Source: Takashimella koratensis (lineage: Eukaryota; Basidiomycota; Tremellomycetes; Trichosporonales; Tetragoniomycetaceae). From it: a stretch of 64,000 bases of DNA. Location: positions 883,763-947,762 of the forward strand of contig BCKT01000001.1 of NCBI GenBank assembly GCA_003116875.1, in the 5' to 3' direction. Below are positions 11,604 to 33,838 of the stretch, one piece after another. Each line of letters starts with the position of its first letter. The stretch's first letter is position 1. Under the pieces are notes generated by a model. That model was not told the DNA's origin and did not search any database. It saw nothing but the letters and a program-made list of their open reading frames with translations. The translations under genes were made by a program, and so were the position numbers.

Positions 11604-13308
11604 ATGAGATTCCCCCCGGCCCCACCTGTCGACGCAGTCAAGTGAGTCCTCACTCATGTCCATCCCAGGACTAAACCCTCCAGGTTCTGCGACTTTGTCA
11701 CTGCCTCGCCTACCCCTTTCCACGCCGTGGCCAACCTGACCGCCCGCCTTGTCTCCGCTGGATTCACCCCTATCTCTGAACGCAACCTCTCCTCTCACTC
11801 TCTCCTTCCTGGCGGGTCTTACTTCTACACTCGCAATCAGTCCTCCCTTGTCGCCTTTACACTCCCAGCTCGCCCTTCGCCCTCGGAGTCGGCCATTTCC
11901 TTTGCGGTCGGCCACGTGGACAGCCCTTGTCTCAAGGTTCGACCGGTCAGCAAAAGGTCCAAGCTGGGCTACCTTCAAGTCGGTGTCGAGCTTTACGGCG
12001 GTGGGATCTGGCACAGTTGGTTTGACCGTGACTTGTCCCTTGCCGGTCGCGTGATCGTCTCAACCCCAAGCGACGCCTCCTCGGGCTCAGGTGGCGCTTT
12101 CACATCTAAACTCGTCAAGATCAATCGACCGATCCTGCGTATCCCGACACTTGCGATCCACCTTGATCGCACTGCCAACGACACCTTTAAATTCAACAAG
12201 GAGACAGAGTTTATGCCGATCGCCGGGCTGGTCGCGGATATGCTGAATGGGTCTGCCGAGGGAGAAACGGGTGGGAGTGGACCGAAACTTGGCGGTCAGT
12301 CGGCGGGACCCAGTCGAGGGCCTTCGCCTGCGCCTTTCTCGGGTACAGCAAGTGGGACGGCCACCCCGGCGAGGATGCAGGTGGACGTAGAGGATGTCTC
12401 GGGAATGGCAGAGAAGCACCACTCGTTGCTCCTCGCTGTACTCGCTGATGAACTCGGCTGCAACATTAGTGACATCCAGGACTTTGAGCTGTGAGCGGTG
12501 GAGAGGGACCCACGCTGACTCTGATAGATCGCTGTACGATACCCAGCCATCCTGCGTCGGTGGCCTGTCAAACGAGTTTATTTTCAGCCCACGTATCGAC
12601 AACCTCATGACCTCGTGAGTACCTTTATAGGTTATTCTTACCGCCTTAGGTTCTGCACGATCGAGGGCCTTTGCGCCGCTGTCGAGACCGAGACATCTGC
12701 TGGTATGCCCAGCGCCGAACCCAACGTCCGCTGCGTCATCCTCTTTGACAACGAAGAAGTCGGTAGTGTCTCTCACCACGGTGCCGAATCCAACCTCCTC
12801 CCAGCGTTTGTCGAGCAAATCGCCTCTCTCCCCGATTTCGCAGGTTACTACCAATTACTCAATGCTAGTTTCCTCATTTCGGCGGATATGGGACACGCAG
12901 TCAACCCAAATTACTCGGATAGGTACGAGACGAACCATGCGCCCAAAATGAACGGTGGGGTCGTGATCAAGACCAACGCGAATCAAAAATATACTAGTAA
13001 CGCACAGACAACATTCTTGCTTCGTCGAATTGCGAAGCGAGCAGGAGTCGCTGTGCAAGAGTTTGAGATTAGGAATGACTCGGTAAGTTGTGATATCGCG
13101 CGGTAGGCTAATCCCGCAGACATGTGGATCTACTGTCGGCCCGCACCTCTCAACTCACGTCCGCACGGTCGATATTGGACTTGCCCAACTCTCGATGCAC
13201 TCGATTCGAGAGACAGCTGGATCGGCCGACGTCGCGAGCTATATCAAGTTGTTCCAGACGTACTTTGATACCTTTGCCGGGATCGAGCGGGAGCTCAAGA
13301 TTGACTGA
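11604..13308 (+). CDS. APE4: Aspartyl aminopeptidase (M18 family)
   Basis: Five exons: 11604-11641, 11684-12490, 12528-12614, 12650-13082, 13120-13308, giving 517 residues (yeast Ape4 about 490). M18 dinuclear zinc peptidases remove N-terminal Asp/Glu. Visible family landmarks are [15 protein letters not shown] at the N-terminus, the metal-binding His in [10 protein letters not shown] (about residue 90), and the catalytic/metal acidic pair in LFDNEEVGS (about 344-347). [12 protein letters not shown] and the C-terminal metal His region near [18 protein letters not shown] follow. A Gly/Ser/Pro-rich insertion of roughly 40 residues (around 12250-12400), probably a surface loop, precedes [18 protein letters not shown] and accounts for the extra length. 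Yeast Ape4 is cytosolic and carried to the vacuole by the Cvt pathway; whether that holds here is unknown. It converges with CBF5. Confidence 0.96.
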
Positions 13309-13413
13309 GAAAGGCTGTCACATTCCAAGATCATTATTACATACAATGCAAGGGCGCTGAGCCAAAAGATACGAAGGGGGACAAATGAGAAGGAGGAAAA
13401 AATGGAGAGATGT

Positions 13414-15022
13414 CTACTCCTCGGCAGCTTTCTTGGCCTTTTTAGCCGCTTTCCGTGCTGCTCGCTCCTCGGCCGTCTCCTCGCGCTCAACACCGTCCTC
13501 GGTCTTGACCTTCTTCTTCTTCTACATTTGGTCAGCAAAAAACCACCACAACCACTCACCTTCTTCTCACCGTCGGCATCAGCCTTGGTGGGGGTCTCGG
13601 GAACAGCCTCGGCGGCCTCCGACTTGCGCTTGCGCTTCTTCTCCTTCTCGGCACCGTCATCCTCGATCGGAGTGATAGTCGCCTCTGGTTGAGTCGGGAC
13701 AAGTCCATCCTGCGCCTGTTCCTCGGCGTTGTAGTCGACGTAAGATTTAGACCAAGTGTCAGGAGTAACACCGTCAATCTTCTTGCCGTACTTGTCAAGC
13801 TCGCCCTTCTTGATCATCTTCTTCTTCTCCTGGGCTTTGGGACCGAGACCCCATCGGCGAGGGTAGAGGTCGCGGTTCATAATGCATCGCTTGACCTTGG
13901 CGACGACACCGTGATCGCAAGAGGCAAGGTCGACGGTCGACATCATGGCGATACCGATAGCGATCGCCTCACCTTTGGTAGTCATGAGAACAACTTCCTC
14001 GTGAACCTCGATATCGGCCTCGTATCGGAGCAAACCGGGGATCATGAGCTTGGCACCGTAACAGACCGCGTTGACTGCCGAATCCTTGACGACGACACGC
14101 TTAAAGTTGGTGAGCAAGGATTCGAGAGGTCGAATAACTCGGCGGAGGTATGATTCGTCGCGGGTATTGTCGTAAACCCATTGGGCGTCGAGAACATCGT
14201 GCATTGTCACGATATCATCGTTCTCACCCGTAATACCGGACCTGACACGACGAAGTTCCTGCATGTGGGCGCCGACACCGAGCAAGAGACCGAGATGGAC
14301 ACAGAGCGTTCGGATGTAGGTACCGGCCTCGCACGAGACCCAGAAGACACCGAGGTTGCGCTTGGGGTCAAACTCGATCAACTTGGATTCGTAAATGGTA
14401 CGAACACGAAGTTGTCGCTTGACGGCGGAGATGAGGGGTGGGCGCTGGAAGAGAGCACCGGTGAGGGTTTCAAGCGCACGAGCGAGAGCCTTCTCCTCGA
14501 CCGTATCGTGGAATCGAACGACACAGACGTACTCCTTCCCTGCACCTTGCTGCGACTTGACAAGCCGAGTCGCACGGTCGATACAGACGATCAAACAACC
14601 AGTGACTTTTGGGTCAAGGGTACCAGAGTGACCAGTCTTCTCGACTCGAAGGATTCGTTTGAGCCACGCGACGACTTCGTGCGAGGAAGGGTTCGAGGGT
14701 TTGTCGAGGTTGATCACACCGGATTTCACATAGGTTGCAAGCTCGCGCTTGAGCGGGGAGACACCCTAGTGGGGTTAGCACAGAAGTGGGGGTCTACTTA
14801 CAGTGGGGATAGGGGTGAAGTGGGAGGATCGGATGAGAAGCTTTTCGTAGTTTTTCAACAGCAACGGCCACTGCGAGGTGTCTATAGATGGTTAGATGTC
14901 TCCTGCCACCCTTTCGACTCACCAAGCTTTGGAGTCACCGCCTCGCTCTTGATAGCGTAGTCGCCAGATAGCTGGAGCGCCGTGACCTGGTCGTGCGAGA
15001 GCCCGTTGGACGAGGACGCCAT
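13414..15022 (-). CDS. CBF5: H/ACA snoRNP pseudouridine synthase Cbf5 (dyskerin)
   Basis: Four exons: 15022-14923, 14881-14802, 14765-13560, 13521-13414, closing to 497 residues (yeast Cbf5 483, human dyskerin 514). The protein has the dyskerin-like N-terminal segment ([33 protein letters not shown]). The TruB catalytic domain follows, with Asp about residue 111 in [16 protein letters not shown], then a PUA domain and a Lys/Glu-rich nucleolar-type tail. Cbf5 catalyses isomerisation of uridine to pseudouridine in rRNA and snRNA, guided by H/ACA RNAs with Nop10, Nhp2 and Gar1. The last intron splits the KK(E/D)-like tail, which is short compared with yeast. The gene is divergent to the mS23 gene (252 bp apart) and convergent with APE4. 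Confidence 0.97.
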
Positions 15023-15274
15023 GGTGGTTGGTAGGTGAGGGGTTAGTGAGTAGAGTGGAGATGGTGTCGGCGCAAAAAATGATGGCATCGAAAAAAGTTG
15101 CGCAGGGAAAAGGGTACACGTGTAAAATGGGCTTGGGGCAGAATCCTAATAGGACTAATGAGGAGATTAGCAGATCAATGTGAAACGTTATCAATCCCCC
15201 TACTCCCAGCGTACGAAAAAATCGAGAAAAAAGTGTCTATCGACCGTCTTCCAACACCTTTACCCCTCCTCGAC
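15023..15274. promoter_or_regulatory. Shared divergent promoter of CBF5 and mS23 gene
   Basis: A 252-bp spacer separates two divergent start codons, so both promoters and leaders overlap. It couples a nucleolar and a mitochondrial ribosome-biogenesis gene. No individual element was identified. Confidence 0.55.
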
Positions 15275-16365
15275 ATGGTACGCAAGCTCGCGACCCAAGT
15301 CCCCCAGTTCGTCTCGCGGCTCTTGCAGGCGGACCTCCTCTCCACTCCTCCGACATGGTATCAGCCTGTCCTTTCCAACCCACCACCTGTCCTCCCTCCT
15401 CGGCAAGTGATCGCTCGTTCCCGCCCTACCTCTTCCACCTCGCTTTACCCCGACCTCCCTCGCGCATCAGCGTCTACCTCGCGTAAGGGGAAACGGTATC
15501 CACGTGAACCCAAGCCCAGGCCAGCCGCAATTGTATATGATGAAGACAGGATCAGGCGTCAGTTCTTTAGAGATTTCCCATTCGAAGCACTTAGGCCGGT
15601 ATCGCTGGTCGAGTCGGCAGAGGTTGCTGGAGAACATGGGGTGAATGGGTCAAGTTGGACAAAGCTTGAACAGCGTGGATCGTACCCGACTGTCGAGGAG
15701 TGAGTAGACGGGTCTCTGATACCGATTTAACCTTCTCCAGCACAATCTCATTCACTGTCAACCTGCACAAGGAGCAAAACATCTCCCTCTCGGACGCTTA
15801 CGAGCAAGCGACGACCGAGTTTGTCGCTCTTCGCGCTAAACATGAGATGGCGACTCTTGTAGCCGAGGACCAAGCTAGGGCTTTGGGTGCAGAGTTTAAG
15901 CGTGACGCATGGGTGAGTGATTTATTACAAACACCTCTAAACTTGATATAGGACCGCGCATACGATCAACAAACGCGTGCACTTTCTCAATCCTCTTCTT
16001 CTTCCTCATCCACCTCTCTTGATTCCTCCCGATCCACGAAATACCGTACCCCATCACACTGGACGGCCTCGATCGCTTCTTCCGTCCTCCCTTCGCTCCC
16101 ATTCACTGGCGGAGTCGAGTACGTCTCACAGTGGTCGATGCCTGCTGCTGCTGTACCTTCCTCCGCTGCACCGGCGAGGGGCGACCTCGTATCGGCCATT
16201 GGAAGTGCGGCACCTGTTAATGTGGAAATGAGCGAGGCCGAGATGTCTGATGTGGAACTGTTGGACAAGTTCCTCAATGAGCCGGTGGTTTTGGAGAAAT
16301 CAGATGGCGCGGTTGAGGTTGAAGACGCGTTTGAGCAGGTGTTGGCAGAGGTCAAGACCAAGTAG
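15275..16365 (+). CDS. RSM25: Mitochondrial small ribosomal subunit protein mS23 (Rsm25-like)
   Basis: Three exons: 15275-15699, 15741-15912, 15952-16365, giving 336 residues. The N-terminus (MVRKLATQVPQFVSRLLQAD, then PPTWYQPVLSNPPP) matches the mS23/Rsm25 family, which in yeast starts with a similar amphipathic helix and a TPxWYxxVxxxPP motif. The central region (YDEDRIRRQFFRDFPFEALR, then TVNLHKEQNISLSDAYEQA) is also family-like: a V-x-L-x-x-x-Q-N-I-S-x-x-E/D-A-Y module. The product is longer than yeast Rsm25 (264) because of a Ser-rich linker and an acidic C-terminal tail. It functions in the mitochondrial 37S subunit. The second intron is short with a weak poly-pyrimidine tract, but the frame closes. 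Confidence 0.88.
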
Positions 16366-16468: not shown

Positions 16469-16792
16469 TTACTTCCCGCCTAGCCTCGAACGAGTTCCGG
16501 TAAACCCTCGACCACTGGTTCCTGAAGAGGAATGAATGGGTGTCGCGACCTGCCCACTCGGTTAGCACACGGTGTTCCAGGGCGACCTACGGGCTGGGTC
16601 GGGGCGAGGAGCGACCGAGTTTCGGTACGGTCAACTTCGCTCTCGGGGTAAAGCCATGACGAAGTGGATGGAGTCCGTCCTGGGTCCAGCCATGACGAAG
16701 TGGATGGAGTCCGTCCTGGGTCCAGTCAGCTTCTAGTCGTGGGTAGGTGAAGGCTCACTGCGGTGTCTCGGTCGGCTAGAGGTAGATCCCAT
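16469..16792 (-). CDS. Array gene A: small predicted N-myristoylated protein, basic, Ser/Thr-rich
   Basis: Three exons: 16792-16759, 16715-16591, 16549-16469, closing to 79 residues. The N-terminus MGSTSSRPRHRR has Gly2 and Ser6 followed by Arg7, fitting the N-myristoyltransferase consensus with a polybasic patch behind it. A 12-residue unit (RTPSTSSWLDPG) is repeated in tandem because of a 36-bp DNA duplication. The duplicated DNA carries a copy of the intron 1 acceptor (gacccag). The tail is Ser/Gly/Arg-rich and ends RLGGK. Exon 1 (34 nt, phase 1) and the first bases of exon 2 match gene B, so A and B look like close paralogues. There is no recognised domain. It is convergent with mS23, with about 100 bp between the stops. 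The gene model is inferred from splice sites and frame only. Confidence 0.62.
16653..16724. repeat. 36-bp perfect tandem duplication (two copies)
   Basis: Copies at 16653-16688 and 16689-16724 are identical. On the minus strand the unit begins tggacccaggacgg. It lies at the intron 1/exon 2 boundary of array gene A, adds 12 codons in frame, and duplicates the 3' splice-site sequence. Confidence 0.97.
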
Positions 16793-17267
16793 GGTGGCGA
16801 GCAGTGTAAAGGACAGTTGGAGATGTGCTGAAGAGAGAAGCGTGGGTGGTGGCGCGGAACGCATTACACCCTCTCTCAAAGGGTTTGTGTATTATACCCA
16901 CAGGCCCAAACTCAAAAGTCGTTTACGCACGTCAAGAGTGGTGCATGGTGCGATCTGCGCGTCACTGCCGTCACTGCCTCACTGCCTTTTAAGCCTCGCA
17001 CTTTCGCCACACACCACGACTCTCCTTTGGGACACCGCTTCGGATCAGGTCACTATCCTTTGCATACACACTATCATATGATAGTCGAGGGCAGAGATGA
17101 GGAGATGATGGACACGATCCCTCGTGGGCTGCGGACGAGAGGAGCTGCATTCATGGTCTTACGCTGCGCTTAGCTTGGGACGACGTGCCCAAGGTATGGT
17201 CGCCTCTCGAAGTGTGAAGGTGCATGACTTCCGAAGGGTGTCGAAGGTGATTCGACGAATCAAAGTA
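16793..17267. other. Spacer between array genes A and B
   Basis: This spacer contains a candidate TATA element for gene A (minus-strand GGTATAAT at 16898-16891, about 100 bp upstream of its ATG). A ctgccgtcactgcctcactgcc short direct repeat lies near 16967-16988. No coding signal. Confidence 0.45.
16891..16898 (-). promoter_or_regulatory. Candidate TATA box of array gene A
   Basis: The minus strand reads GGTATAAT about 100 bp upstream of the gene A start codon. Position and sequence fit a TATA element. Similar A/T-rich elements lie 95-140 bp upstream of genes C, F and G. Confidence 0.35.
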
Positions 17268-17716
17268 TTACGACCTTTGGTGTCCCTCGCTTGGTCTGTC
17301 TGGTGGCGACGTCCTCTCGCCTCCCGGCATCCCATGATCGCCGACAGCCGCGGGGTTCTGGGGCTCGGTCTCGGCCTGGGCATTGGATGAGTCACCGCAT
17401 CAGCACCAGTTAAAGCTCTACTACATCCTTCCTCGATGAATCAGGGAGAGACTAAACTCACAGGGTCGGGCGGGAGACGGACCGGTGGGTTCTCGTTTCG
17501 GTTCAACTTGGAGTAAAGACCCGACGACTTCTTTCCGCGTCCTACCCGTTGAGCAAACGGTCAGTCTCAACCAACGTCCGCGGAGCAGGAAGTGGGAGCA
17601 AAAGAGGAACGAGGATGAAGGCGAGAGGTGTTGCTTAATCGTGGGAACGCCAGGGGTCCAGGAGGTATGAGAGAGGGCTTACTGCGTCGCTTGGGTTTGC
17701 TGGACCCCGTGCCCAT
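17268..17716 (-). CDS. Array gene B: small predicted N-myristoylated, polybasic protein
   Basis: Three exons: 17716-17683, 17541-17462, 17375-17268, closing to 73 residues. The N-terminus MGTGSSKPKRRRRGKKSS has Gly2, Ser6 and Lys7 (myristoylation consensus). A strong Lys/Arg cluster follows, which in known proteins cooperates with myristate for membrane binding or could act as a nuclear localisation signal. The rest is hydrophilic (LNRNENPPVRLPPDP, then an acidic/Pro/Gly-rich tail ending EGHQRS). Exon 1 length (34 nt), its phase and the GA start of exon 2 equal those of gene A. No Gly/Cys tail is present, unlike genes C-G. The function is unknown. The model rests on canonical donors, CTGAC-type branch sites and a closed frame. 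Confidence 0.6.
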
Positions 17717-18000
17717 GATGAATAAAGCAACGAGGTAGGTGAGGTCAAGCAGATGCCGTCACGCCAGTCTTAAGGTCGTTGCGAAAGACGAAAAGGAGGT
17801 GAGAGGGCGCTCTCAAGCGCTGGGAAATAAACCCTCTCCCAAACTTAAAGTCGTGTGCGTACTCCAGGATCTCGTGTAGTAGTCTGCATCATCGGCTCTA
17901 CCTGATTCACTCCTACAGTGTACGAGGTTGGCCTTTTGCCAAGTGCGCGTATCATTTGAACCTCGCTACGTCCTGCACCGATCTTGACCTCGCCACCGCC
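17717..18000. other. Upstream region of array gene B
   Basis: This region lies between the gene B start and the small open frame at 18001-18324. It contains an A/T-rich ggaaataaaccc segment near 17822, about 110 bp upstream of the gene B ATG. Nothing else is supportable. Confidence 0.4.
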
Positions 18001-18324
18001 TCACACCTCCTTTCCAACATCATAGACGGCAAAAACGTGCACCTGACCGCTGTCTGTGTCGATACCTTTCAACTGAGATCTGGTCAATGTTCCTTTAGAC
18101 TCTACGACGTGTGCAGTCGGTGCCCCATCCTCGTCCTCGACCCAGGCCACCGCCCTCGCCGGCTGCACACCCCGTGAGCACCAGGTCTCTATTCCCTCCT
18201 CAATGGTGGACAGTTGTACCAGCCTAATATATACAATCCAAACGCCGGCTGCACCAGAGACCAGCTCCCTAAATTTTGTCTGTGTCAAAGCGGTACCAAT
18301 AGCGACTCCACCGCTTAGTGGCAT
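18001..18324 (-). CDS. Uncertain small open frame just downstream of array gene C
   Basis: An uninterrupted frame from ATG 18324-18322 to T-G-A 18003-18001 encodes 107 residues (start MPLSGGVAIGTALTQTK, end VHVFAVYDVGKEV). It starts 12 nt after the gene C stop. Its composition is balanced rather than repetitive and includes a hydrophobic stretch near AAGVWIVYIRLVQL. It could be a separate small gene, a decayed C-terminal portion of an ancestral larger gene, or chance. No intron and no family are visible. I rank it as speculative. Confidence 0.3.
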   Translation of the reverse strand: MPLSGGVAIGTALTQTKFRELVSGAAGVWIVYIRLVQLSTIEEGIETWCSRGVQPARAVAWVEDEDGAPTAHVVESKGTLTRSQLKGIDTDSGQVHVFAVYDVGKEV

Positions 18325-18335
18325 GAAATCACAGC

Positions 18336-18779
18336 TTAGTCTCCACCTCCTCCGCAACCACCGCCTCCTCCTCCACACCCACCTCCACCGCCTCCGCACC
18401 CGCCATGCCCACTGTGTCCGCCGCCTCCATCACCAGCATTTACCCCTGCGCCTCCGTCGCCGCCTCCATCACCGCCGTCGGCGCGGCCCTTGTCGTGGAA
18501 TTTGTTGCTGTAGCGACGGTGTAGGTCGCGTCGGCGCTGACTTGTGGTCTCGCTGTGAGGGCCAGGGATATGCTTGTGAAGGCAGGATGGGGACTATGGG
18601 CTGTACCGGAGTGGGATGCGGGTGTGGGTGGTGAAGGTAACTTACATTCCTCGAGCGGACTGAGGGTGTCAGCAGTTCATTCGGCAAGAGTGGTGTAAGT
18701 CTGAACTCACGGCGCACCCGCCACGAAGCCGGAGTGGCCCCTCGGTCTCGGAATCGACCTTGCTTCCTCTGTTCCCCAT
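18336..18779 (-). CDS. Array gene C: myristoylation-signal protein with LRLRGGC motif and Gly/Cys tail
   Basis: Exons 18779-18711, 18659-18646 (14 nt) and 18552-18336, closing to 99 residues. The start MGNRGSK fits the N-myristoylation consensus. Exon 1 ends PLRLRGGCA; LRLRGG equals the C-terminus of ubiquitin but is internal here. The Cys after it could be palmitoylated. The microexon encodes S-A-R-G plus part of Ile. Exon 3 begins ETTSQRRRDLHRRYSNK, a basic stretch, followed by Asp/Gly and then a Gly tail with spaced Cys and His (HSGHGGC, then CGGGG blocks) ending in Asp. It is closely paralogous to gene D (shared ETEGPLRLRGGC and SQRRRDLHRRY). No family is recognised. A membrane-attached metal- or thiol-binding protein is one possibility, not shown. 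Confidence 0.72.
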
Positions 18780-19274
18780 CGGACTTGGGTGGTGGGGTTA
18801 TGCAGTAGTTGCACCGGCTCGGTGATGTTGGGAGTGGTTTTGGACGTTGGTGGGTACGATGCGCTGCGGTGAAACGAGGGGGGATGGACGTCCTTGCGTA
18901 GCGAGGGTTTTATACCATCACGACGAGGGGCCGCTCACGCCGCTCACTTGACTGATAGCACTCCCACGCCCCTCCTTTGCGCACAGACAACTGCCCTCAG
19001 CATCGCTCTTGCCCGCATGCTGATCACCATTCCCCGGTCGCCTTGTGGTTTGGGCAGATCAGCGGCGAAAGCTTGACCATCCACGTTCAACGCAAGCGGT
19101 GACTCTGCCCAATCAATCCATGTACCGAACCTGGGGTTTGGATAGGGACCATGGCGTCGTGTATAGCATGGGTCAAAGCTACGTGGCGAGCATAGGTGCT
19201 GTATATATAACATGGGTCTGAGATATGATCACCGATCAACGCTTGCAGAGACTGCAGATGCTCTTCAAACTCAT
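18780..19274. other. Spacer and promoter region upstream of array gene C
   Basis: This spacer carries a minus-strand TATAAAA-like element near 18908-18914, about 130 bp upstream of the gene C start. It also holds one copy of GGGCAGATCAG (19052-19062), which recurs upstream of genes D and F. No coding signal. Confidence 0.45.
18908..18914 (-). promoter_or_regulatory. Candidate TATA box of array gene C
   Basis: The plus strand reads ttttata, i.e. TATAAAA on the coding strand, about 130 bp upstream of the gene C start codon. Confidence 0.4.
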
Positions 19275-19727
19275 CTACGAGGTGCCACCCCCTCCTCCAC
19301 CACACCCGCCTCCTCCGCCTCCGCCCCCGCCCCCACAGCCCCCTGCCCCTCCCCCTCCGCACCCAGAATGTCCACCCGTATGCCCACCTACATGTCCTCC
19401 GAACCCAACATGACCGCCCGCGTGCCCGCCTCCACTCCCACCGCCATCATCAACTCCCCCATCGCCTCCATCGCCATGACTGTGTTTCTTGCCGTATCGC
19501 CTGTGCAGGTCGCGGCGGCGCTGGCTCGCGGTCTCACTGAGCAGGTCAAGGACATGTTACTGAGTGCGAGAGACAATAAGTGGTTCACTTACATGCCGTT
19601 GGCGGACTAGGAACTGTTAGCGGCGGGTCTCGATGAACAGCGAGGGGTCTAGACTCACCGTGCACCCGCCACGAAGTCGAAGCGGTCCCTCGGTCTCGGG
19701 ATGAGACTTGCTTGCTCCGTTCCCCAT
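19275..19727 (-). CDS. Array gene D: myristoylation-signal protein with LRLRGGC motif and Gly/His/Cys tail
   Basis: Exons 19727-19659, 19606-19593 (14 nt) and 19536-19275, closing to 114 residues. The start MGNGASK fits the myristoylation consensus, and exon 1 ends ETEGPLRLRGGCT. The microexon encodes S-A-N-G plus part of Ile. Exon 3 begins ETASQRRRDLHRRYGKK, nearly identical to gene C. The tail alternates GGH units (GGHAGGHVGFGGHVGGHTGG region) and then Cys separated by Gly runs, ending GTS. The repeated Gly-Gly-His and Cys could coordinate metals, by analogy with His/Gly-rich proteins only. Introns 1 and 2 have canonical GTGAGT and GTAAGT donors. This is the most convincing duplicate pair with gene C. 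Confidence 0.74.
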
Positions 19728-20134
19728 CGGATAGGTCCAAGAGTAGGTCAAGTCCTGGAAATATGGAGTCGAAGTGAATGAATAGACCAAGCCAGGTAGG
19801 ATCCTTGCGGCAAGTGCTGAGGGAGGTCGTTTGAGGCGTTTAACCAGCACCACAAGAGTAGAACAGCACGCCATCGGCAATCGCTGCGCCCTCCTTTGCG
19901 CCCGTGGAGCAGAATCCATCGGCGATGCTCTCACTCCTCACCTTGATCATCCGAGCAACCTCGCCTCGCTACGTGGCTCGGGCAGATCAGTCCGTCCCAT
20001 CTCAACATGCCGCAACCACGCCCCTGCTCGAGATCAACTGCTGGCGACCTGCACACGTTCGCACACGTTTACACTTTTCATCAGCTGCGTGCTGTACAAC
20101 GTGGGCTACAAGCTCCATCCACGGCCACTGCCAC
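19728..20134. other. Spacer and promoter region upstream of array gene D
   Basis: This spacer shares short blocks with the spacer upstream of gene C (cctcctttgcgc, gatgctctc and GGGCAGATCAG at 19980-19990). The blocks occur in similar order, suggesting the upstream DNA was duplicated with the gene. No coding signal. Confidence 0.45.
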
Positions 20135-20712
20135 TTAACACCCACCACCGCCTCCTCCCCCACCTCCACACCCTCCGCCCCCACCTCCTCCTCCTCCTCC
20201 ACAACCACTGAACCCTCCTCCCCCTCCCCCTCCCCCTCCTCCTCCACACCCAGCCGTCCCACCCGCATTGGCACCTACCGCCGCCAACCCAGCACCTCCT
20301 GCGAACCCAGTACCGGCAACTAACCCAAACGCTCCGCCTCTACCTACTCTCCCGCTATAAATTGGATCGCTGTATGGTCCGTTCAAGCCGTTCTCTGGAT
20401 ACGGTCGGTAGTCGCCTTGGAGTTTACGACGTTGTGCTGCCGAGTCGCTAGATGGGGTTAGTGTCGCGGCGAGAGGGAGGAAAAAAGGGGGGCGGGGTGA
20501 TGGGAAGTGGAAAAGGAGCATCAAGGTAGAGAAGGGAGCGATGTGATAGGGACGGGGCAAGGCAAGGTAGTGAGCGTGACCTACATATTTCTAGCAGACT
20601 GAAGTAGTCAGCACAGATCATCGAGCGGCCAAAGAGCACCTAGACTCACCGTGCACCCACCACGAAGACGCATCGGCTCATCTTCGTATACCTTGCTCTT
20701 TCCGTTCCCCAT
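20135..20712 (-). CDS. Array gene E: myristoylation-signal protein with RLRGGC motif and long Gly/Cys tail
   Basis: Exons 20712-20650, 20598-20585 (14 nt) and 20447-20135, closing to 129 residues. The start is MGNGKSK and exon 1 ends EDEPMRLRGGCT, nearly identical to gene F exon 1. The microexon encodes S-A-R-N plus part of Ile. Exon 3 begins DSAAQRRKLQGDY, followed by a Tyr/Pro/Gly segment (RPYPENGLNGPYSDP) and an Ala/Gly-rich stretch. A tail of Gly runs punctuated by Cys at intervals of about 10-15 ends in Cys. The long intron 2 (137 nt) has a clear CTAAC branch site and CTAG acceptor. The function is unknown. Confidence 0.72.
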
Positions 20713-21091
20713 TATGCAAATCGTTGTACTTGATCTCAAGTAGTCTTGGTCTGGTGATAACGGATGTGTTAGGGCGAGGGTTGTTGTATGGTGGAGTGAA
20801 AGTGAAAGGAAGTGGAGTCAAGTGGGGGATCAACATGCCCCGCACCGCTTAGTTGTACCTAAATAGCGTGCCAAGAAACGGACCCGTCCAATACGGGTAT
20901 ATCCTCGCCACCACTTACCGCGCACTGCTCCGATGAGGCAAGTGGCGACTCGTCGGAGGATGCCGACCCGACCCAGTTCAACAGCAGCCTGGCGCACTGG
21001 TCGTTCCGTGGAAAACTAACTCGCATAGCTATACAACATGGGTCTACTCATACACGCTCGGCATTTCTCAGTATAATCCTGACAGAGGCAA
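20713..21091. other. Spacer between array genes E and F
   Basis: A 379-bp upstream region of gene E. A minus-strand GATATACC element lies near 20900. No coding signal. Confidence 0.4.
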
Positions 21092-21582
21092 TTACGACCC
21101 TCCACCGCCGCCTCCACAACCACTTCCACCGCCGCCTCCACTATGCCCCCCGGCATGTCCTGCTGAGGACCCACCATGATGTCCTCCTCCAAACCCACCA
21201 TGATGCCCGTGATGTCCTCCCCCGTGATGCCCGTGGTGCCCATGATGACCTCCTCCTCCACCGCCACCGTACCAACCAGACGTAGTTGCGTTGTTTCCAC
21301 TGTAATATGGTCCATAGTTCTTGCCTCGTCGATGACGACCAGATGATGAGTCGCTGGGGTAGTCAGTATCATCTCACGCGACGAGACGCGATGAGGGTAG
21401 ACCAGGATCGACGAGGTCTCGGGGTTGGGCATTGTCACTCACATCCCTCGAGACGACTGAAAGGCGGGGTCAGCTCGGTCCCATGAGAATGTCTACGGCG
21501 AGAGCAGATCGTGACTCACGGTACATCCACCCCGAAGACGAAGGGGTTCGTCCTCATAGACTTTGCTTCTTCCATTCCCCAT
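21092..21582 (-). CDS. Array gene F: myristoylation-signal protein with LRLRGGC motif and His/Gly-rich tail
   Basis: Exons 21582-21520, 21456-21443 (14 nt) and 21353-21092, closing to 112 residues. The start is MGNGRSK, and exon 1 ends EDEPLRLRGGCT. The microexon encodes S-S-R-G plus part of Ile. Exon 3 begins DSSSGRHRRGKNYGPYY and continues into a striking His-His-Gly region (HHGHHGHHGGGHHGHHGG), then Gly/Ser with a single late Cys, ending GGGGGS. The clustered HHG units are the strongest potential metal-binding signature of the array. It is a close paralogue of gene E at exon 1 but differs in the tail, so the tail diverges faster than the anchor. The function is unknown. Confidence 0.74.
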
Positions 21583-22192
21583 GTTGATATAATACCACGC
21601 GATGTGTTTTGTTGGAGCGTTTGGGATGTAGATGGGGTGGAGTATATGCCCGGCACAATGAGATGTACAGTTTATTATTGAGTGCTGTTGAATGTGTTGA
21701 GATGCTCGCCTTCACCCTCCTTATATATTGAGGTTTATTCGGCTCAAGACGATCGTCATGGGCACCGCTTGCCATGGGTCTGGCTATGGCTGTACGCTAA
21801 TCTCCACCAGGAACGGCACTCGCTCGCCACTCACCGCGAGATCCGAGCCAACGCAAATCGGCACCTCACTGCTCCTCCCGGACAGCGATCAACGGCCGAA
21901 GCGCACCGCGGTGGTTGTAATAACACATCCAGGCGGATACTGCATTGCGTCTGGGGCGAGGCGCGGGTGAGTCGAATGACAATCAAGTCGGGAAATGGCG
22001 CACACCGTTCGGGCAGATCAATCGAAAAGTCACCGAGCTCACCGAAATCGGTGTTTAACGGTCCACTTCATTCACCTTGGATTCTCGTCACTTAATTTGC
22101 ATTCAGCATGTACCAGCCTCTCATGTTCCCTCTCCTTTTACAGAATCAGTCGCTTCCACGTCATGCGGAGATATCATGTCCGTCGCAATTGA
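21583..22192. other. Spacer and promoter region upstream of array gene F
   Basis: This spacer contains a minus-strand AATATATAA element at about 21721-21730 (roughly 140 bp upstream of the gene F start). It also holds a copy of GGGCAGATCA at 22011-22020. No coding signal. Confidence 0.45.
21721..21730 (-). promoter_or_regulatory. Candidate TATA box of array gene F
   Basis: The plus strand reads ttatatattg, i.e. CAATATATAA on the coding strand, about 140 bp upstream of the gene F ATG. Confidence 0.4.
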
Positions 22193-22742
22193 TCAGAGCC
22201 CACTCGAAGGCGGGGCAGTGTACCCGCTTCCTCCTCCTCCTCCTCCTCCACACCCCGAACTCCAACCAGTCTGAGTGGTATTGGCCCCACAGGACGAAGT
22301 CCATCCACTCCTTCCTCCTCCGTACGTCCCTGCGTTCCCTCCCCCTCCGCCGTCGCCGCCGCCGCAGGACGAGACTGGTGCCGAATACGTGTTACCTGCG
22401 TTGGCGGCGGCGAAGGTGGTGGTGTCCGTAGAAGTTGGGTTAGGGGTGCGATTCGAAGAAAAGAAGTTGAGAGTGATGGGGACACCCGGAACGCGGTTGG
22501 CAGTAGCAACAGTTCGACGCTGCCCAGCGCCTTCGTCCCTGTTAAGTTGTCAGAGGGGTTGTTCACACAGTAAAGTTTGAGATCGAGAAAGGGGAGGGAA
22601 GAAGGATACTTGCATCGTAGCAGCAGACTGCAGGTGGTCCTTGTCAGCAATCAATGTATGGGTAATGGGGCTTCGACCATGGTGTTCACTCCGCCGGGGA
22701 TGGTGGACTCACAGTACACGCCTTGCTCAAAGCAGAGCCCAT
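22193..22742 (-). CDS. Array gene G: divergent myristoylation-signal protein with Gly/Cys tail and GC-AG intron
   Basis: Exons 22742-22713, 22627-22614 (14 nt) and 22538-22193, closing to 129 residues. Exon 1 is only 30 nt (MGSALSKACT): it keeps Gly2, Ser6, Lys7 and a Cys but lacks the RLRGG block. The microexon encodes S-A-A-T plus part of Met, in the same 14-nt phase as in C-F. Intron 2 uses a GCAAGT donor. Exon 3 begins DEGAGQRRTVATANR, retaining the QRR core, then a Thr/Asn/Ser-rich segment. The tail has Ser-Cys-Gly and CGGGGGGGSGYT elements. It is the most diverged C-G member and sits at the upstream end of the array. The function is unknown. Confidence 0.7.
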
Positions 22743-23476: not shown

Positions 23477-25308
23477 CTACTTGGACTCGGCGGTCATGTC
23501 AACACCCGAGTCGGAAATGTTACCCGAGGGTTCCTGGACACCGACCATCTGAGCGACACCGCTCATGTTCTTGTAGAACACGACGTCCTCGTTATCCTCG
23601 ACGAATCGGCACTCGCGGTAGTTCCTGTAGGCCGTGAGGAGGATGTTGTCGTCTGCGCACTTGTAGTGAGGACCGAGGAAAGTCTTGAGGGCCTCGGTAG
23701 CTTCCCAAGCGTTGTAGTGAGGGATCTTGGAGGAGATGTGGTGAGCGACGTGGGTCTCGCAAATCCCGTGAAGGATGTAAGGGCCGATAGGGCCAAGGAA
23801 CTTGCGGTCGATGGTGGCCAAGGCGCCTCGGGCAAAGTTCCAGGTCGACGGGGAGTAGTGGGCTAGACCGTGGGTTAGCACAACTTGGGATCGATACAGA
23901 GGTTGACACTCACGGAGCAAAGGGTCGGTGTGCTGGAGGAAAGTAATCAAGACGAGCCAGTTGTTGACAAAGAGGTAAGGAATGAAGTAAACGACGAACA
24001 TCTCGGTGAAGCCGCGGTAGTAAGTCCAGACACCAAGGAGAGCGAGGGTGATGAAGACGCCAATGTCAGAGACGATAACCTGCCACTGCTGCGAGGGCTT
24101 GAAGATGATCGAGTTGGGCGAAAAGTGGTTGGTGTACGCAGGGTAGTGGAGCTGGCCACTGGCGTTACGGATAAGGTAGAGCGGCCAGCCAAAAAGCTGC
24201 TGGAGGAGGTAATTGAAAAGAGTGGCAATTGGGGCTTCACCGATGGCCTCGTACAGCTCGGTCTGGCGCCAAGCGGGAACGCTGAATGGGGTTAGCCAGG
24301 GCCCCCAGGGTGGGGGGCGACTCACTTGAGACCGAGAAGCTCAGACTCGTGTTTGATCTCCGGGTACTTCATCTCCTTGCGAGTACGCGGGACGAAAATC
24401 TCGTCACGGGTAAGGTGACCAGTCGCTGCGTGGTGGCGAGCGTGCTATGAGGAGTTAGCGCCTTTTGCCACTAGTGACTCACGGAGATACGCCAGCTGTG
24501 GTACGGGACAAGCAAGGCAGAGTGGAGGAACCATCCGACCGTGTTGTTGATCTCCTTGGAGGTGGAGTACGCCTGGTGACCGGCCTCGTGGCTATAAGGT
24601 TAGTGGGGTGCAAATACGGGGGTAACTCACGCAATGATCCAGACACCGGTACCGACGAGACCAGCTGAGATGCTGTATCCAGTCCAGAGCGCAGCGCGGA
24701 GAGCGTAGTAAGCCGGGGCCGAGAGGTTACTACGAAAGGTATCAGCAGTTGTCAAGCGAGATCGCATGGAGACTGGCGGTGGAGCTGCGCGTTGAGTGGC
24801 CCTACGGGATAAGGGAACTCACAGCGAGGCGACAAAGTCGTCAATGTGGTACGCGCCGTAGACGAGACCACCGAGGAGGGCAAAGTCCTGGACGACGTAG
24901 AGGGACGAGTAGAACGCCGAGCGCTTGAAGCAGTGCGCCCTGGGTAAGATTAGCGTTGGGGTCGAGCGGTGCAAAGGTAGAAGGTGGGGGCAAGGAAAGG
25001 TGGGGGCAAGGACTCACGGGATGGCGTCGAGGAGCTGCTTGACGGTAAAGTTGGGCACGACGAACCTGGTCAAAGCGTTAGCAAAGCTGCGCTCCGACTC
25101 TTTCCATGGACGCTGGAGAAAGCGCAAAACCCCGGCGTATCGCGTCGCCACCGGAATGTTCGGAGCTGGGCACCAAAGATGGAAAGCTCTCGACTACTCA
25201 CTTCTGACCCTCGGTGATCTCCTTCTCCTCAGCCTCACGGATGAGGGCGTTCTTCTGCTGCTGCGCCTCGGGAGACGGGGCGCGGCGACGAACAGCGGCA
25301 GCGACCAT
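23477..25308 (-). CDS. Delta-12-type fatty acid desaturase
   Basis: Eight exons: 25308-25202, 25065-25018, 24939-24823, 24729-24631, 24591-24483, 24444-24326, 24281-23914, 23862-23477, closing to 450 residues, typical for fungal delta-12/omega-3 desaturases. The three histidine boxes that bind the di-iron centre are HEAGH (about 125-129), HARHH (161-165) and HVAHH (360-364). Hydrophobic membrane segments lie before box 1 and between boxes 2 and 3. The enzyme inserts the second double bond into oleoyl chains in the ER, making linoleate with cytochrome b5 as electron donor. The first box has Ala where delta-12 enzymes usually have Cys (HECGH), so regiospecificity should be checked. The start gives a short Ala/Arg/Gln-rich cytosolic N-terminus. 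Confidence 0.95.
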
Positions 25309-26810: not shown

Positions 26811-29384
26811 TCACCAAACCTCATCGACCTTGCTGCGGTGGATACAGAACCCCTATCACTGATCAGCCTCGCCCAACACACCATCCCGTTCAAGCCCAAC
26901 TCACAGGTGTGACCCATTCTTTGCAACCGCACTGAACTCCAGCCCAATCAAAGTTGCCAATCTTGGCTCCACATTTCTCATTAGGGCAAACAAGTTTTCC
27001 CGCGACTGCTCCCGAGGCAAGAACGGGTTCCATCCATGTAAGCTGATGATGGCTTTAGCTTCCACCGCAACATTACCACATCCTATCCCGGTGTACTCCC
27101 CCGGACCACCCGACTCACCGGCTCAACAAAGTATCCTGAACACTTTGGGTTGGCCAAGATCGGAAGACTCATCGGTGTCATTCCACCCAAACTCGCAGCG
27201 CTTCCTCTCCTCTCCCATCCTTGCCCTTGAGGTCCACCTTCCTGCCCTTGTCCGGCTTCACTAGGTGTGAGCGCGAGCATTGACATTTTCCTTCCTGCTG
27301 CTCTAGCCCCTGCGCCCTGGGTGCTTGAAGTCCCCAGGCTCGAGCGGCGCGCGATCCCCGAAGGAGCGGTATCTGTCTCTGGGCTAGAAGGGGGTGACGA
27401 ACCAATCGGCGAGGCGAGGCCCGTCATCCCTTGCCCCGCGGCTCGGAGGGCGAGCAAGTGCGGGGGCAGTTTGGCAGCCAGCTGATCCGCGTCAAGCATG
27501 GGTCGACCCGACCCGGTCTGTGGGAATGTGTTGGCGTGGCCATTGCCGTTGTTGGAGTTACGCAGAACAGCTGGGTTGGACGAGATCGCCGCGAGGTTGG
27601 GGAGGGTCTGGGCTGAGCCGCCGGCAGGCTCGGGGGACGCGTGGGTCAGAGAGAGACTAGGGCGGTGAGCGAGGAGGTTAGGACCCCTAGGTAGAGGTAC
27701 CCCAGCGGATTGAGGTCGAGTCTCAGCCGGTGGCGACGACGCGTCTGTGGCAGAGTCGCGCTGGTAGACTGTCATCGCCTCGGGGTGGGTAAGGGATAAC
27801 GAAGCGTTCCGAGACCTGATAGCCCCAGGTCGACCAGTTAGCGGATTGATGATATCCGAAACCACCGAGGCTCTCCTCTCCCTCTCTCGCCCGCCGAAAC
27901 CAGGAGACGAAGCGTCCATGTCCCCAGGTGACGGAGAGGAGACGATCGCGGACATTGGGAGAGGCCCAGGGAGGAAAGGGTTGGACGGTGTTCGAGGTCG
28001 AGAGATGGGAGCTTGGTCAAGGATATGATCCATCATATGTTCGCGAACAGCCAGGTGACGACGACACATCTTGCACCGGATCTTACGACGGCCGTGGGAA
28101 CCAACAGGGGTAGGTGGGTTTGAGGTGCTGGGTGTAGCTGGGAACTTGGCCATTTTGTCCATCGGTGGGGTCCCGCCTTCATCTATAGGTTGTTAGCTTC
28201 TCCCTTGTGCACCACTCACTCATAACGTAGCTGGTCGTGCGTTCCATATAAAACTGCCTTGTCGGTCGATCTCTCAGCGTCACCTTGCCATCTGCATTAT
28301 AATACAGGCCCAACTGATGCCAAAACGTCTCTGACGGATCGACCACGGGCCTTGCGTCTTTCACCTTTGACACGGCGTCAACGGGGTCGAGGGATTCTGC
28401 GCGCATGAGGTAGGCAGCGACGACGGTGGCGGAGCGGGACATTCCTGCTTGGCAGTGTACGAGAACGGAGCCAGGTCGGGTTGGGCCAATGCGTTTGTCA
28501 ATGTCTTTACTCCGGACAGGGAGAGAGGAAGAAGCGGAGGAGGTGGAGGTAGGTGAGGTAGGTGAGGTGGAAGTGGAGCTAGAGGCCAGAGGACGAGGAG
28601 GGAGAGAAGGAGGTGGGTGGGAAAGAGCTTCTTGGATCCAAGCGACACAGGAGGGGAGGTAGGTTAGGATATCGGTCGTCGGGGAATCGTCAATCTCGAG
28701 GTGATAGGTCGCAAAGTCGGGTGCGAATTCGAGCGCGGGGCGAAGAAGGGAGACGATGTTGGTCTATGGGTTCGTGGTCAGCTAGAAACGATTAAAGTAG
28801 CAACAAGTGGTTTAACATAGATTTGTAGTCTGTCAAGTACTCACGATTCCACGTTGTCGGAGTCCATCCGCGTCCATGGCAGCTACCAGATCCCCGATCC
28901 ACAACCCGGGGACTACCTCTTGCAAATGTTCAATCTCGACTGCGTCTTCCTCTCCCCCATACTGATCCTGGTCCATCTCCTCGTACCCTTCTCCCTCGTC
29001 ATCACCTTCTTGGTCGACAGCTACGAATCCTTGCTGATACTCCATCTCTTCCGGGTCGTCCATCCACACTGGTCTCTTCGGGGCCTGCGCGATCACTTGC
29101 TGCGGTTGCGCGCCGGTATCGTACCCTGTTTGTTGTCCAGTAGTAGACCCCGAATCGTCTCGACTGCTCCCTGATGATACTTTCCGATTTGTGTATCCCG
29201 ATTGCTGTTGTTGAACCGCAGCAAGAGCGGCAAGTTTTCTCGCTGCGGCCTCTAATGAACCCATCGCTTCCACTTGAGTATAAACATCGTCAATCGCTTC
29301 TTCGTCCGATTTGGCGGCATCGTGTGGGGCCGTGTCAAGTATCTGGGAGGAAGTACGCGCCGGGAGAGGTGGCCGGTTGGACAT
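26811..29384 (-). CDS. YVH1: Dual-specificity phosphatase Yvh1 with enlarged zinc-binding region
   Basis: Five exons: 29384-28845, 28763-28220, 28182-27119, 27042-26905, 26852-26811, giving 775 residues (yeast Yvh1 364). The dual-specificity phosphatase domain spans exons 1-2, with entry motif VPGLWIGDLVAAMDADGL and P-loop HCQAGMSRS (catalytic Cys about 284). The C-terminal Yvh1 zinc domain is complete: IRCKMCRRHLA (about 392), KCSGYFVEPLTWM, LVCPNEKCGAKIGNFDWAG and CGCKEWVTPGFCIHRSK. In yeast this domain releases Mrt4 during late 60S ribosome maturation. A disordered Ser/Pro/Arg insertion of about 300 residues separates the first Cys pair from the rest of the zinc domain. A long Gln/Ser linker precedes the phosphatase domain. 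Confidence 0.94.
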
Positions 29385-32400: not shown

Positions 32401-32646
32401 CTTCTCATCCACACCTTCTTTCGACACACGACGACCCTCGGTTCACTCGCCTAGTCGTCTCATCGCTCTCTTGCGTCTTGGCAATATCCCATCTCCTCCA
32501 CCGCCCGCGTCAACTACCTCCGCACACTGCCCACCATCCTTTCCTGATCACTCCTCATCACATCTCTCTTCCCTCTTCCATCACATCCGCCACCTACTCA
32601 CACCTTTTCTCCTCTTCCCTCCCCACCCCACTCCAACACCACCACG

Positions 32647-33838
32647 ATGAACTCGATCCACCCGCTCATGTCCGTCATGCCTAACGGGTCCTACGACCAC
32701 TCTGCTGCTGCTGCCGCCGCTGCGGCAGGTCTCTCCCGCCCCTCATCATCCTACGACTACCCACATCACGCTCAACACTCGCACAGCCATCACGGGCGTA
32801 CCGAGCACGGGTCCAGCCACGATCAGCAGCAACAACAGCAGCACGAGTCCACTCACTCTCATGCCAACGGGAGTAGTAACGGTCCTGCCGGGATGGATTT
32901 TGCCTACGCTTCTTACGGCGACGACCTGGGTTCCTTTGCGATGCACCCTTACTCGCGATCAGGCCAACCTTCATCCTCTTCCCTCCACAACGCCGCTTAC
33001 TCTCACTCGCACCACGCCCCCTCCCACTCTCGATACCTCGACCTCGACCCCTCGATCAACCGAGAATCGCGCTACCTCGAGCTCGACATGCCGTCTGCCT
33101 CTGCCCCACACGCCCACGGTCACGTACACCACCACGCCCACGCCCATCACACGGGATACCCCTTGTATGGTGACGCTGCCTCGGCTTCAGGGTCGGGCTC
33201 GGCCGCTCCAGGTCTCAGCAACGGCTCAGAGAACGACCACTCCCCTTCGTCAGGCTCGGTACCAAGGGACGACGACCTCCCGTACCCGCGTGCGGCGATG
33301 AACGGCGCTGCGGCCCTCGCTGCCGGTCTCGACGGGTACGTCGACGACGTTCCGGATTTGATCAAGCTCGAGGCCGCTGGAGGCATGGGTATGGGTCTGG
33401 GCGGGGATGGGATCGATGCCGGGATCGATGATCAGGGAGACGGGGAAATGGATATGGAGGAACCATTATACGTCAACGCAAAGCAGTACCATCGGATTTT
33501 GAAGAGGCGTATCGCTCGTGCCCGTTTGGAAGAACTCAACCGTCTTGTTCGATCAAGAAAGGTGAGTAGACTCACTCGCGCCCTTCCTCTTCATGTGGTC
33601 TTTGATCCCACGCATCTACTGACAAGCCCAGCCGTACTTGCACGAATCTCGACACAGGCACGCTTGTTCTCGCCCGCGCGGCAAAGGTGGGCGTTTCCTC
33701 ACTGCGGACGAGATTGAGGCTTTGCGTCAGGAGGAGTTTGCCAAGGGGAGTAGCGACGCGGCTGCTGCCACTGCGGACGGGGCCAACAGTGGCGAGGCGT
33801 CGACTGCGGCGTCCGTTTCCGAGTCGGAACAGGCATAG
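32647..33838 (+). CDS. HAP2: CCAAT-binding factor subunit Hap2 / NF-YA
   Basis: Two exons, 32647-33561 and 33632-33838, closing to 373 residues. The conserved NF-YA core is split by the intron. The subunit-association helix reads EPLYVNAKQYHRILKRRIAR and ARLEELNRLVRSRK; the DNA-binding part reads PYLHESRHRHA, then RPRGKGGRF, as required to contact CCAAT. The N-terminal 270 residues are low-complexity with poly-Ala, His/Ser and Gln runs, probably activation or regulatory sequence. The C-terminal tail is Ala/Ser/Glu-rich. Hap2 binds the Hap3/Hap5 histone-fold dimer and, in fungi, regulates respiratory and iron-dependent genes. A CS replaces the usual MR/NR just before RPRG, a minor change. It is divergent to ATP5. 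Confidence 0.96.

What the first reader, a model, noticed from the sequence alone, without database searches (positions are those of the whole stretch)
16469..22742. Head-to-tail array of seven tiny genes encoding M-G-x-x-x-S-K/R proteins, an apparently undescribed family
Seven small genes, all on the minus strand, each with three exons, encode 73-129 residue proteins. All seven have Gly2, Ser6 and a basic residue at 7, the textbook N-myristoylation signal. C-G share a 14-nt exon, an (S)QRR-type basic stretch and Gly tails with Cys/His. A and B are shorter and polybasic. The anchor is conserved while the tails diverge, as expected for lipid-anchored proteins whose exposed tails are under different selection. 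I know no family with this layout. Gene models come from reading splice sites and frames; the myristoylation reading is from established consensus; any role (surface sensing, metal binding, self/non-self, stress) is open.
Basis: partly seen in the sequence, partly recalled or inferred. Interest (0 to 1): 0.92.

Follow-up and report, generated by a model that had tools for sequence, protein, structure and literature searches.

The report
Tiny fungal proteins with ubiquitin's tail

Summary
The array is real as a set of gene models. Seven minus-strand models of 73-129 aa all begin M-G-x-x-x-S-K/R. A CTRAY branch-point-like site lies near the acceptor in 12 of 14 introns, against a 14% background. 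C/D and E/F differ mostly at synonymous sites in the conserved part. It is not shown to be one family: A and B have other intron phases and do not align with C or D above shuffles.

C-F carry (L/M)RLRGG-Cys at the end of exon 1. RLRGG is the end of this genome's own ubiquitin. G lacks it but keeps the Cys. The core recurs in an unnamed Kwoniella protein (LRLRGGCASASNID), which as deposited lacks MGxxxSK.

The genome encodes a ZUFSP-type deubiquitinase, a class reported to cut RLRGG peptides fast without folded ubiquitin. Best explanation: a likely myristoylated leader and a Gly-rich tail that such an enzyme would separate at RLRGG|C. Expression, acylation and cleavage are untested. A free mini-ubiquitin modifier is disfavoured: human Ube1 did not activate VLRLRGG.

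The parts
22193..22742 (-). Gene G, exons 22742-22713, 22627-22614, 22538-22193; 129 aa; MGSALSKACT|SAATM.. ; same 14-nt exon and phases as C-F, keeps Cys but lacks RLRGG
   Evidence: GC-AG intron 2; aligns to E and F above 999 of 1000 shuffles, to C above only 886 of 1000
21092..21582 (-). Gene F, exons 21582-21520, 21456-21443, 21353-21092; 112 aa; MGNGRSKVYEDEPLRLRGGCT; Gly/His-rich tail
20135..20712 (-). Gene E, exons 20712-20650, 20598-20585, 20447-20135; 129 aa; MGNGKSKVYEDEPMRLRGGCT; Gly/Cys-rich tail
19275..19727 (-). Gene D, exons 19727-19659, 19606-19593, 19536-19275; 114 aa; MGNGASKSHPETEGPLRLRGGCT; Gly/His/Cys tail
18336..18779 (-). Gene C, exons 18779-18711, 18659-18646, 18552-18336; 99 aa; MGNRGSKVDSETEGPLRLRGGCA; Gly/Cys tail
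17268..17716 (-). Gene B, exons 17716-17683, 17541-17462, 17375-17268; 73 aa; MGTGSSKPKRRRR; separate pair with A (34-nt exon 1, phases 1 and 0)
   Evidence: no further copy in the genome
16469..16792 (-). Gene A, exons 16792-16759, 16715-16591, 16549-16469; 79 aa; MGSTSSRPRHRRR; exon 2 and its acceptor lie in a tandem duplication of about 36 nt
   Evidence: alternative acceptor gives 66 aa
19052..19061 (-). TGATCTGCCC upstream of C
   Evidence: exact copies in the window are three, all in this array, same strand; up to one mismatch there are 8 matches and 11 of 100 shuffles reach 8
19980..19989 (-). TGATCTGCCC upstream of D
22011..22020 (-). TGATCTGCCC upstream of F

Best explanation
Genes C-F are predicted to encode small proteins whose likely N-myristoylated leader ends in ubiquitin's terminal pentapeptide RLRGG followed by a conserved Cys, and a ZUFSP-type deubiquitinase of the same cell would likely cut there and free the Gly-rich tail from the membrane. 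Shown by sequence: the MGNxxSK start, (L/M)RLRGG-C in the same open frame as the ATG, conservation of that core at protein level within the array and in one Kwoniella protein, a 14-nt exon 2, basic stretch and Gly/Cys/His-rich tails, and a ZUFSP-like gene and an N-myristoyltransferase gene in the genome. Inferred: transcription and splicing, myristoylation, membrane location. Untested: that RLRGG is recognised as in ubiquitin, that cleavage happens, and what the leader and the Cys-tail fragment then do. Paralogue G, which has the anchor and the Cys but no RLRGG, would be the uncut form.
For: RLRGG-C in 4 of 4 of C-F; across C-F 6 of its 7 codons (first Leu included) vary in DNA, and the only amino-acid change is Leu to Met at the first. 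The genome's own ubiquitin reads STLHLVLRLRGG. Kwoniella P0001 has LRLRGGCASASNID, 10-11 of 14 identical to each of C-F; its alignment to C, D, E and F beats 2000 of 2000 shuffles each. LRLRGGC occurs 7 times in the six-frame genome: 3 are C, D, F; the 4 others have no MGxxxSK within the 60 codons read upstream, and match the reversed-pattern control of 4. A ZUFSP gene lies on contig C8: PF07910 E 4e-33 for my hand-spliced 415-residue partial model, 4.5e-27 to ZUP1 6ei1; catalytic Cys, His, Asp aligned; Asp406 and Trp423 kept, Glu428 replaced by Asp. ZUP1 and Mug105 cleave RLRGG-AMC efficiently, most other DUBs do not (PMC8776766, PMC5824887, passages). NMT gene present.
Against: No expression, acylation or cleavage data. 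The only outside relative has database E 1.9 and its deposited N-terminus lacks MGxxxSK, so the anchor is not shown outside this genome. G keeps the Cys without RLRGG, so the Cys has a role of its own. ISG15 also ends in RLRGG yet is not cleaved by ZUFSP (PMC5824887), so the pentapeptide is not always enough. ZUFSP is widespread and not linked to this locus. One of its two Arg-binding acids is Asp instead of Glu here. A six-residue match noticed after the fact can be coincidence.
Confidence: 0.33

Rival explanations
1. Plain lipid-anchored proteins: myristate on Gly2, perhaps a second fatty acid on the conserved Cys, and the basic RLR/QRRR stretches bind the inner membrane face; the likeness to ubiquitin is coincidental and the Gly-rich tails serve as low-complexity glue or metal-binding arms.
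For: MGxxxS[KR] in 7 of 7; the Cys is kept in C-G (5 of 5), also in G, which has no RLRGG; basic residues around it; His- and Cys-rich tails.
Against: Does not say why R-x-R-G-G is exact in C-F and in Kwoniella when K and R would both serve a membrane; the Kwoniella protein as deposited has no myristoylation start.
Confidence: 0.4
2. RLRGG is an arginine-methylation (RG/RGG) site in a Gly-rich RNA- or condensate-associated protein.
For: RGG precedes Gly-rich tails of 29-48 Gly in exon 3; RGG as a methylation motif is recalled, from no call.
Against: A single RGG, in the leader and not in the tail; Leu at both flanking sites is kept and is not needed for methylation.
Confidence: 0.12
3. After cleavage the leader, with a free LRLRGG end, acts as a tiny lipid-bound ubiquitin-like modifier or ubiquitin-tail decoy.
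For: Ubiquitin-tail-derived short peptides can be charged by E1 (PMC6136576, passages).
Against: In that paper the native tail VLRLRGG was the negative control and was not activated by human Ube1. No ubiquitin fold is present: no Pfam match for C-F.
Confidence: 0.05
4. Artefact: not protein-coding genes, or coding in other frames.
For: No RNA data; no annotated homologue over most of the length.
Against: Synonymous excess, branch sites in 12 of 14 introns, one 14-nt exon kept in five copies with introns of different lengths, Kwoniella match.
Confidence: 0.05

Closest known systems
Kwoniella mangroviensis L486_07531 (P0001, hypothetical protein, 79 aa)
   Same: LRLRGGCASASNID core, basic stretch, C-terminal Gly/Cys run
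   Different: No MGxxxSK in the deposited sequence, shorter tail; database E 1.9
Ubiquitin and ubiquitin-fusion precursors
   Same: LRLRGG followed directly by more protein, as in the polyubiquitin and the ubiquitin fusion of this genome (LRLRGGMQIF, LRLRGGMAKK)
   Different: No ubiquitin fold: no Pfam ubiquitin match; the match ends at LRLRGG; Cys follows
ZUFSP family deubiquitinases (ZUP1, Mug105)
   Same: Known to act on RLRGG as a bare peptide; a gene of this family is in the genome
   Different: They are the proposed enzyme, not relatives of the array; no natural non-ubiquitin RLRGG substrate appeared in the passages I saw
N-myristoylated MGxxxSK proteins in general
   Same: Gly2, Ser6, Lys/Arg7
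   Different: No sequence family shared; acylation not tested

Membership tests
Ubiquitin / ubiquitin-like proteins | beta-grasp ubiquitin fold | tested here: not met
   hmmscan of C-F against Pfam: 0 families at E up to 1; leader before RLRGG is only 14-16 residues
Ubiquitin / ubiquitin-like proteins | R-x-R-G-G tail at a processing site | tested here: met
   RLRGG then Cys in C, D, E, F; same as own ubiquitin tail; absent from G
N-myristoylated proteins | Met-Gly start with Ser/Thr at 6 and basic residue at 7 | tested here: met
   7 of 7 models; not in the deposited Kwoniella relative
N-myristoylated proteins | N-myristoyltransferase in the organism | tested here: met
   PF01233, E 1.8e-27, contig C4
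N-myristoylated proteins | Myristate actually attached to Gly2 | not testable with these tools
   needs labelling or mass spectrometry
ZUFSP substrate | R-x-R-G-G recognised by two acidic residues of the enzyme, then cut | tested here: inconclusive
   motif present; enzyme present with Asp at both places, Glu in ZUP1 at the second; cleavage not tested
ZUFSP enzyme (gene on contig C8) | Peptidase_C78 domain with Cys-His-Asp triad | tested here: met
   PF07910 E 4e-33; triad aligned to 6ei1; partial hand-spliced model
One seven-gene family A-G | Shared intron phases and sequence beyond MGxxxS | tested here: not met
   A/B phases 1/0, C-G 0/2; A/C, A/D, B/C, B/D reached by 243, 576, 474, 196 of 1000 shuffles

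The most novel reading that the evidence does not exclude
Fungi of this class have a two-part protein system without ubiquitin: a lipid-anchored leader ending in ubiquitin's RLRGG and a Cys-headed Gly-rich tail, cut apart by a ZUFSP-type deubiquitinase that reads the bare pentapeptide. This would be a natural non-ubiquitin substrate family for that enzyme class, would give a purpose to its puzzling peptide activity, and would make membrane release of the tails a DUB-controlled switch, with paralogue G as the permanently anchored form.
Probability: 0.2. Interest if true: 0.85.

Novelty: new variant of a known kind. Interest (0 to 1): 0.6.

Why it matters
ZUFSP enzymes cut the bare peptide RLRGG much faster than ubiquitin-AMC, and the 2022 paper says the molecular basis is not entirely clear (passages). 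A family of cellular proteins that carries exactly this peptide outside any ubiquitin fold is a ready candidate for a natural substrate and can be tested in a tube. If the peptide turns out to be coincidental, the array is still an unnamed, tandemly expanded family of likely lipid-anchored Gly-rich proteins in Tremellomycetes.

Tried and rejected
Homologues: 5.8-billion-protein search with D residues 1-46 gave no candidate; with the C-F alignment, tails masked, 29 candidates and one protein at E up to 10. As a control the neighbouring desaturase found many Tremellomycete proteins, so the database holds such genomes (1617 proteins at E up to 1e-50, best 120 listed); tiny genes may still be unannotated there.

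Further copies in the genome: protein queries B, C and F found no new member; the one match elsewhere (L017, E 0.022, stop inside) was read and dropped as chance. The other LRLRGGC places (L007-L010) lack MGxxxSK; the L007 frame was read and not taken as a member. The Kwoniella protein used as query on the genome gave nothing, with no candidates in the first look, so that search is uninformative. I did not run searches with E, G or A.

Intron retention or exon-2 skipping: all such products of C-G are short or shift out of the Gly frame; stops at intron 2 follow from a phase-2 GTRAGT donor and were not taken as regulation.

Promoters: local alignments of upstream regions are weak (best pairs reached by 2-7 of 200 shuffles); TGATCTGCCC and GCGCAAAGGAGGG (exact only upstream of C and D) are leads, not proof of co-regulation; an A/B upstream likeness is equally weak.

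Literature: searches returned no paper; others returned lists, of which I saw passages of PMC8776766, PMC5824887 and PMC6136576 and only listings of the rest. Nothing in print about this family was found in these searches of the held open-access library.
Full report
What is there. Reading the minus strand and rebuilding splice sites gave seven three-exon models, A to G. All seven start M-G-x-x-x-S-K or -R. The introns look real: 13 of 14 are GT-AG and one is GC-AG (G intron 2), and a CTRAY branch-like site lies near the acceptor in 12 of 14, against 14% of 5000 random windows before AG on the same strand. In the conserved part the changes are mostly synonymous: pS/pN 0.48/0.12 for C/D and 0.75/0.23 for E/F; the more distant pairs range from 0.60/0.38 to 0.81/0.40. 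Glycine tails use all four Gly codons. Coding by these frames is thus well supported, but no RNA was available.

Not one family. C-G share a 14-nt second exon between phase-0 and phase-2 introns; A and B have a 34-nt first exon and phases 1 and 0. A/B aligns above 998 of 1000 shuffles, but only because of the first seven residues: without them 165 of 1000 shuffles do as well. A or B against C or D is not above background; G aligns to E and F above 999 of 1000 shuffles, to D above 984 and to C above only 886. A and B against E and F were not tested.

The feature that was missed. The end of exon 1 in C, D and F reads LRLRGGC, in E MRLRGGC. This genome's own ubiquitin ends STLHLVLRLRGG. Across C-F six of the seven codons differ in at least one copy, with one amino-acid change, Leu to Met in E. 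Searching the whole genome in six frames for LRLRGGC gave seven places: C, D, F and four others; the reversed-pattern control gave four. None of the four others has an MGxxxSK start in the 60 codons read upstream. So the motif as such is not rare in six frames; its repeated, protein-level conservation in this array is the point.

A relative elsewhere. A profile of C-F with masked tails found one protein at E up to 10 among 29 candidates: a 79-residue hypothetical protein of Kwoniella mangroviensis, E 1.9. That E-value alone proves nothing. But its core LRLRGGCASASNID is 10-11 of 14 identical to each of C-F, the alignment beats 2000 of 2000 shuffles against each, a basic stretch follows, and it ends GCGGGGC. 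It also comes from the same class, Tremellomycetes (the window's desaturase is closest, 74%, to Cryptotrichosporon argae). I take it as a true homologue. Its deposited N-terminus has no MGxxxSK; whether that start is misannotated could not be checked.

How it may work. Among deubiquitinases the ZUFSP family stands out because it cuts RLRGG-AMC efficiently, while most others need folded ubiquitin (PMC8776766 and PMC5824887, passages seen). The genome has such a gene on contig C8. My hand-spliced partial protein (415 residues) matches PF07910 at 4e-33, ZUP1 at 4.5e-27 and Mug105 at 1.4e-11. The catalytic Cys, His and Asp align; of the two acids that hold the two arginines, Asp406 is Asp and Glu428 is Asp here; Trp423 is kept (residue numbers by my count on the 6ei1 alignment from Cys360). 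The proposal is that C-F are anchored by myristate, that the enzyme cuts at RLRGG|C, and that a Cys-headed Gly-rich tail is freed; G would stay uncut. Each step after the sequence is inference.

Against it. ISG15 ends in RLRGG and is not cut by ZUFSP. G keeps the Cys without the motif. The plain lipid-anchor rival explains the start, the Cys and the basic residues without any cleavage, and I give it slightly more weight (0.40 against 0.33). A free modifier peptide is unlikely because the native tail heptapeptide was not activated by human Ube1 (PMC6136576, passages).

Surroundings. The array lies between a delta-12 desaturase-like gene (23477-25308, minus) and a mitochondrial ribosomal S25-like gene (plus), with Cbf5/dyskerin-like and M18 aminopeptidase genes beyond. 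TGATCTGCCC occurs exactly three times in the window, each upstream of C, D or F on the same strand; allowing one mismatch there are eight matches, reached by 11 of 100 shuffles. By simple base count I would expect about 0.12 exact matches.

Verdict.

Noticed in passing
23477-25308 (-): Delta-12 fatty acid desaturase-like gene directly upstream of the array; best relatives Cryptotrichosporon argae 74% and Vanrija humicola 71%, which suggests a Trichosporonales-like organism.
   Followed up: partly
16591-16730 (-): Gene A carries a head-to-tail duplication of about 36 nt that includes the intron 1 acceptor and the start of exon 2, so two acceptors in the same frame exist.
   Followed up: no
L024 (G000 C8, minus strand, about 3475-1790): ZUFSP-type deubiquitinase with an N-terminal zinc-finger-like part resembling the TAX1BP1 zinc finger (E about 0.003) and a second CPVC motif.
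   Followed up: partly
22614/22613 (-): Gene G intron 2 uses a GC donor (GCAAGT), the only one of 14 introns.
   Followed up: no
13239-14762 (-), 15083-15700 (+), 11646-13103 (+), 28182-28763 (-), 32548-33714 (+): Neighbouring reading frames match Cbf5/dyskerin domains, mitochondrial ribosomal protein S25, M18 aminopeptidase, dual-specificity phosphatase and NF-YA.
   Followed up: no
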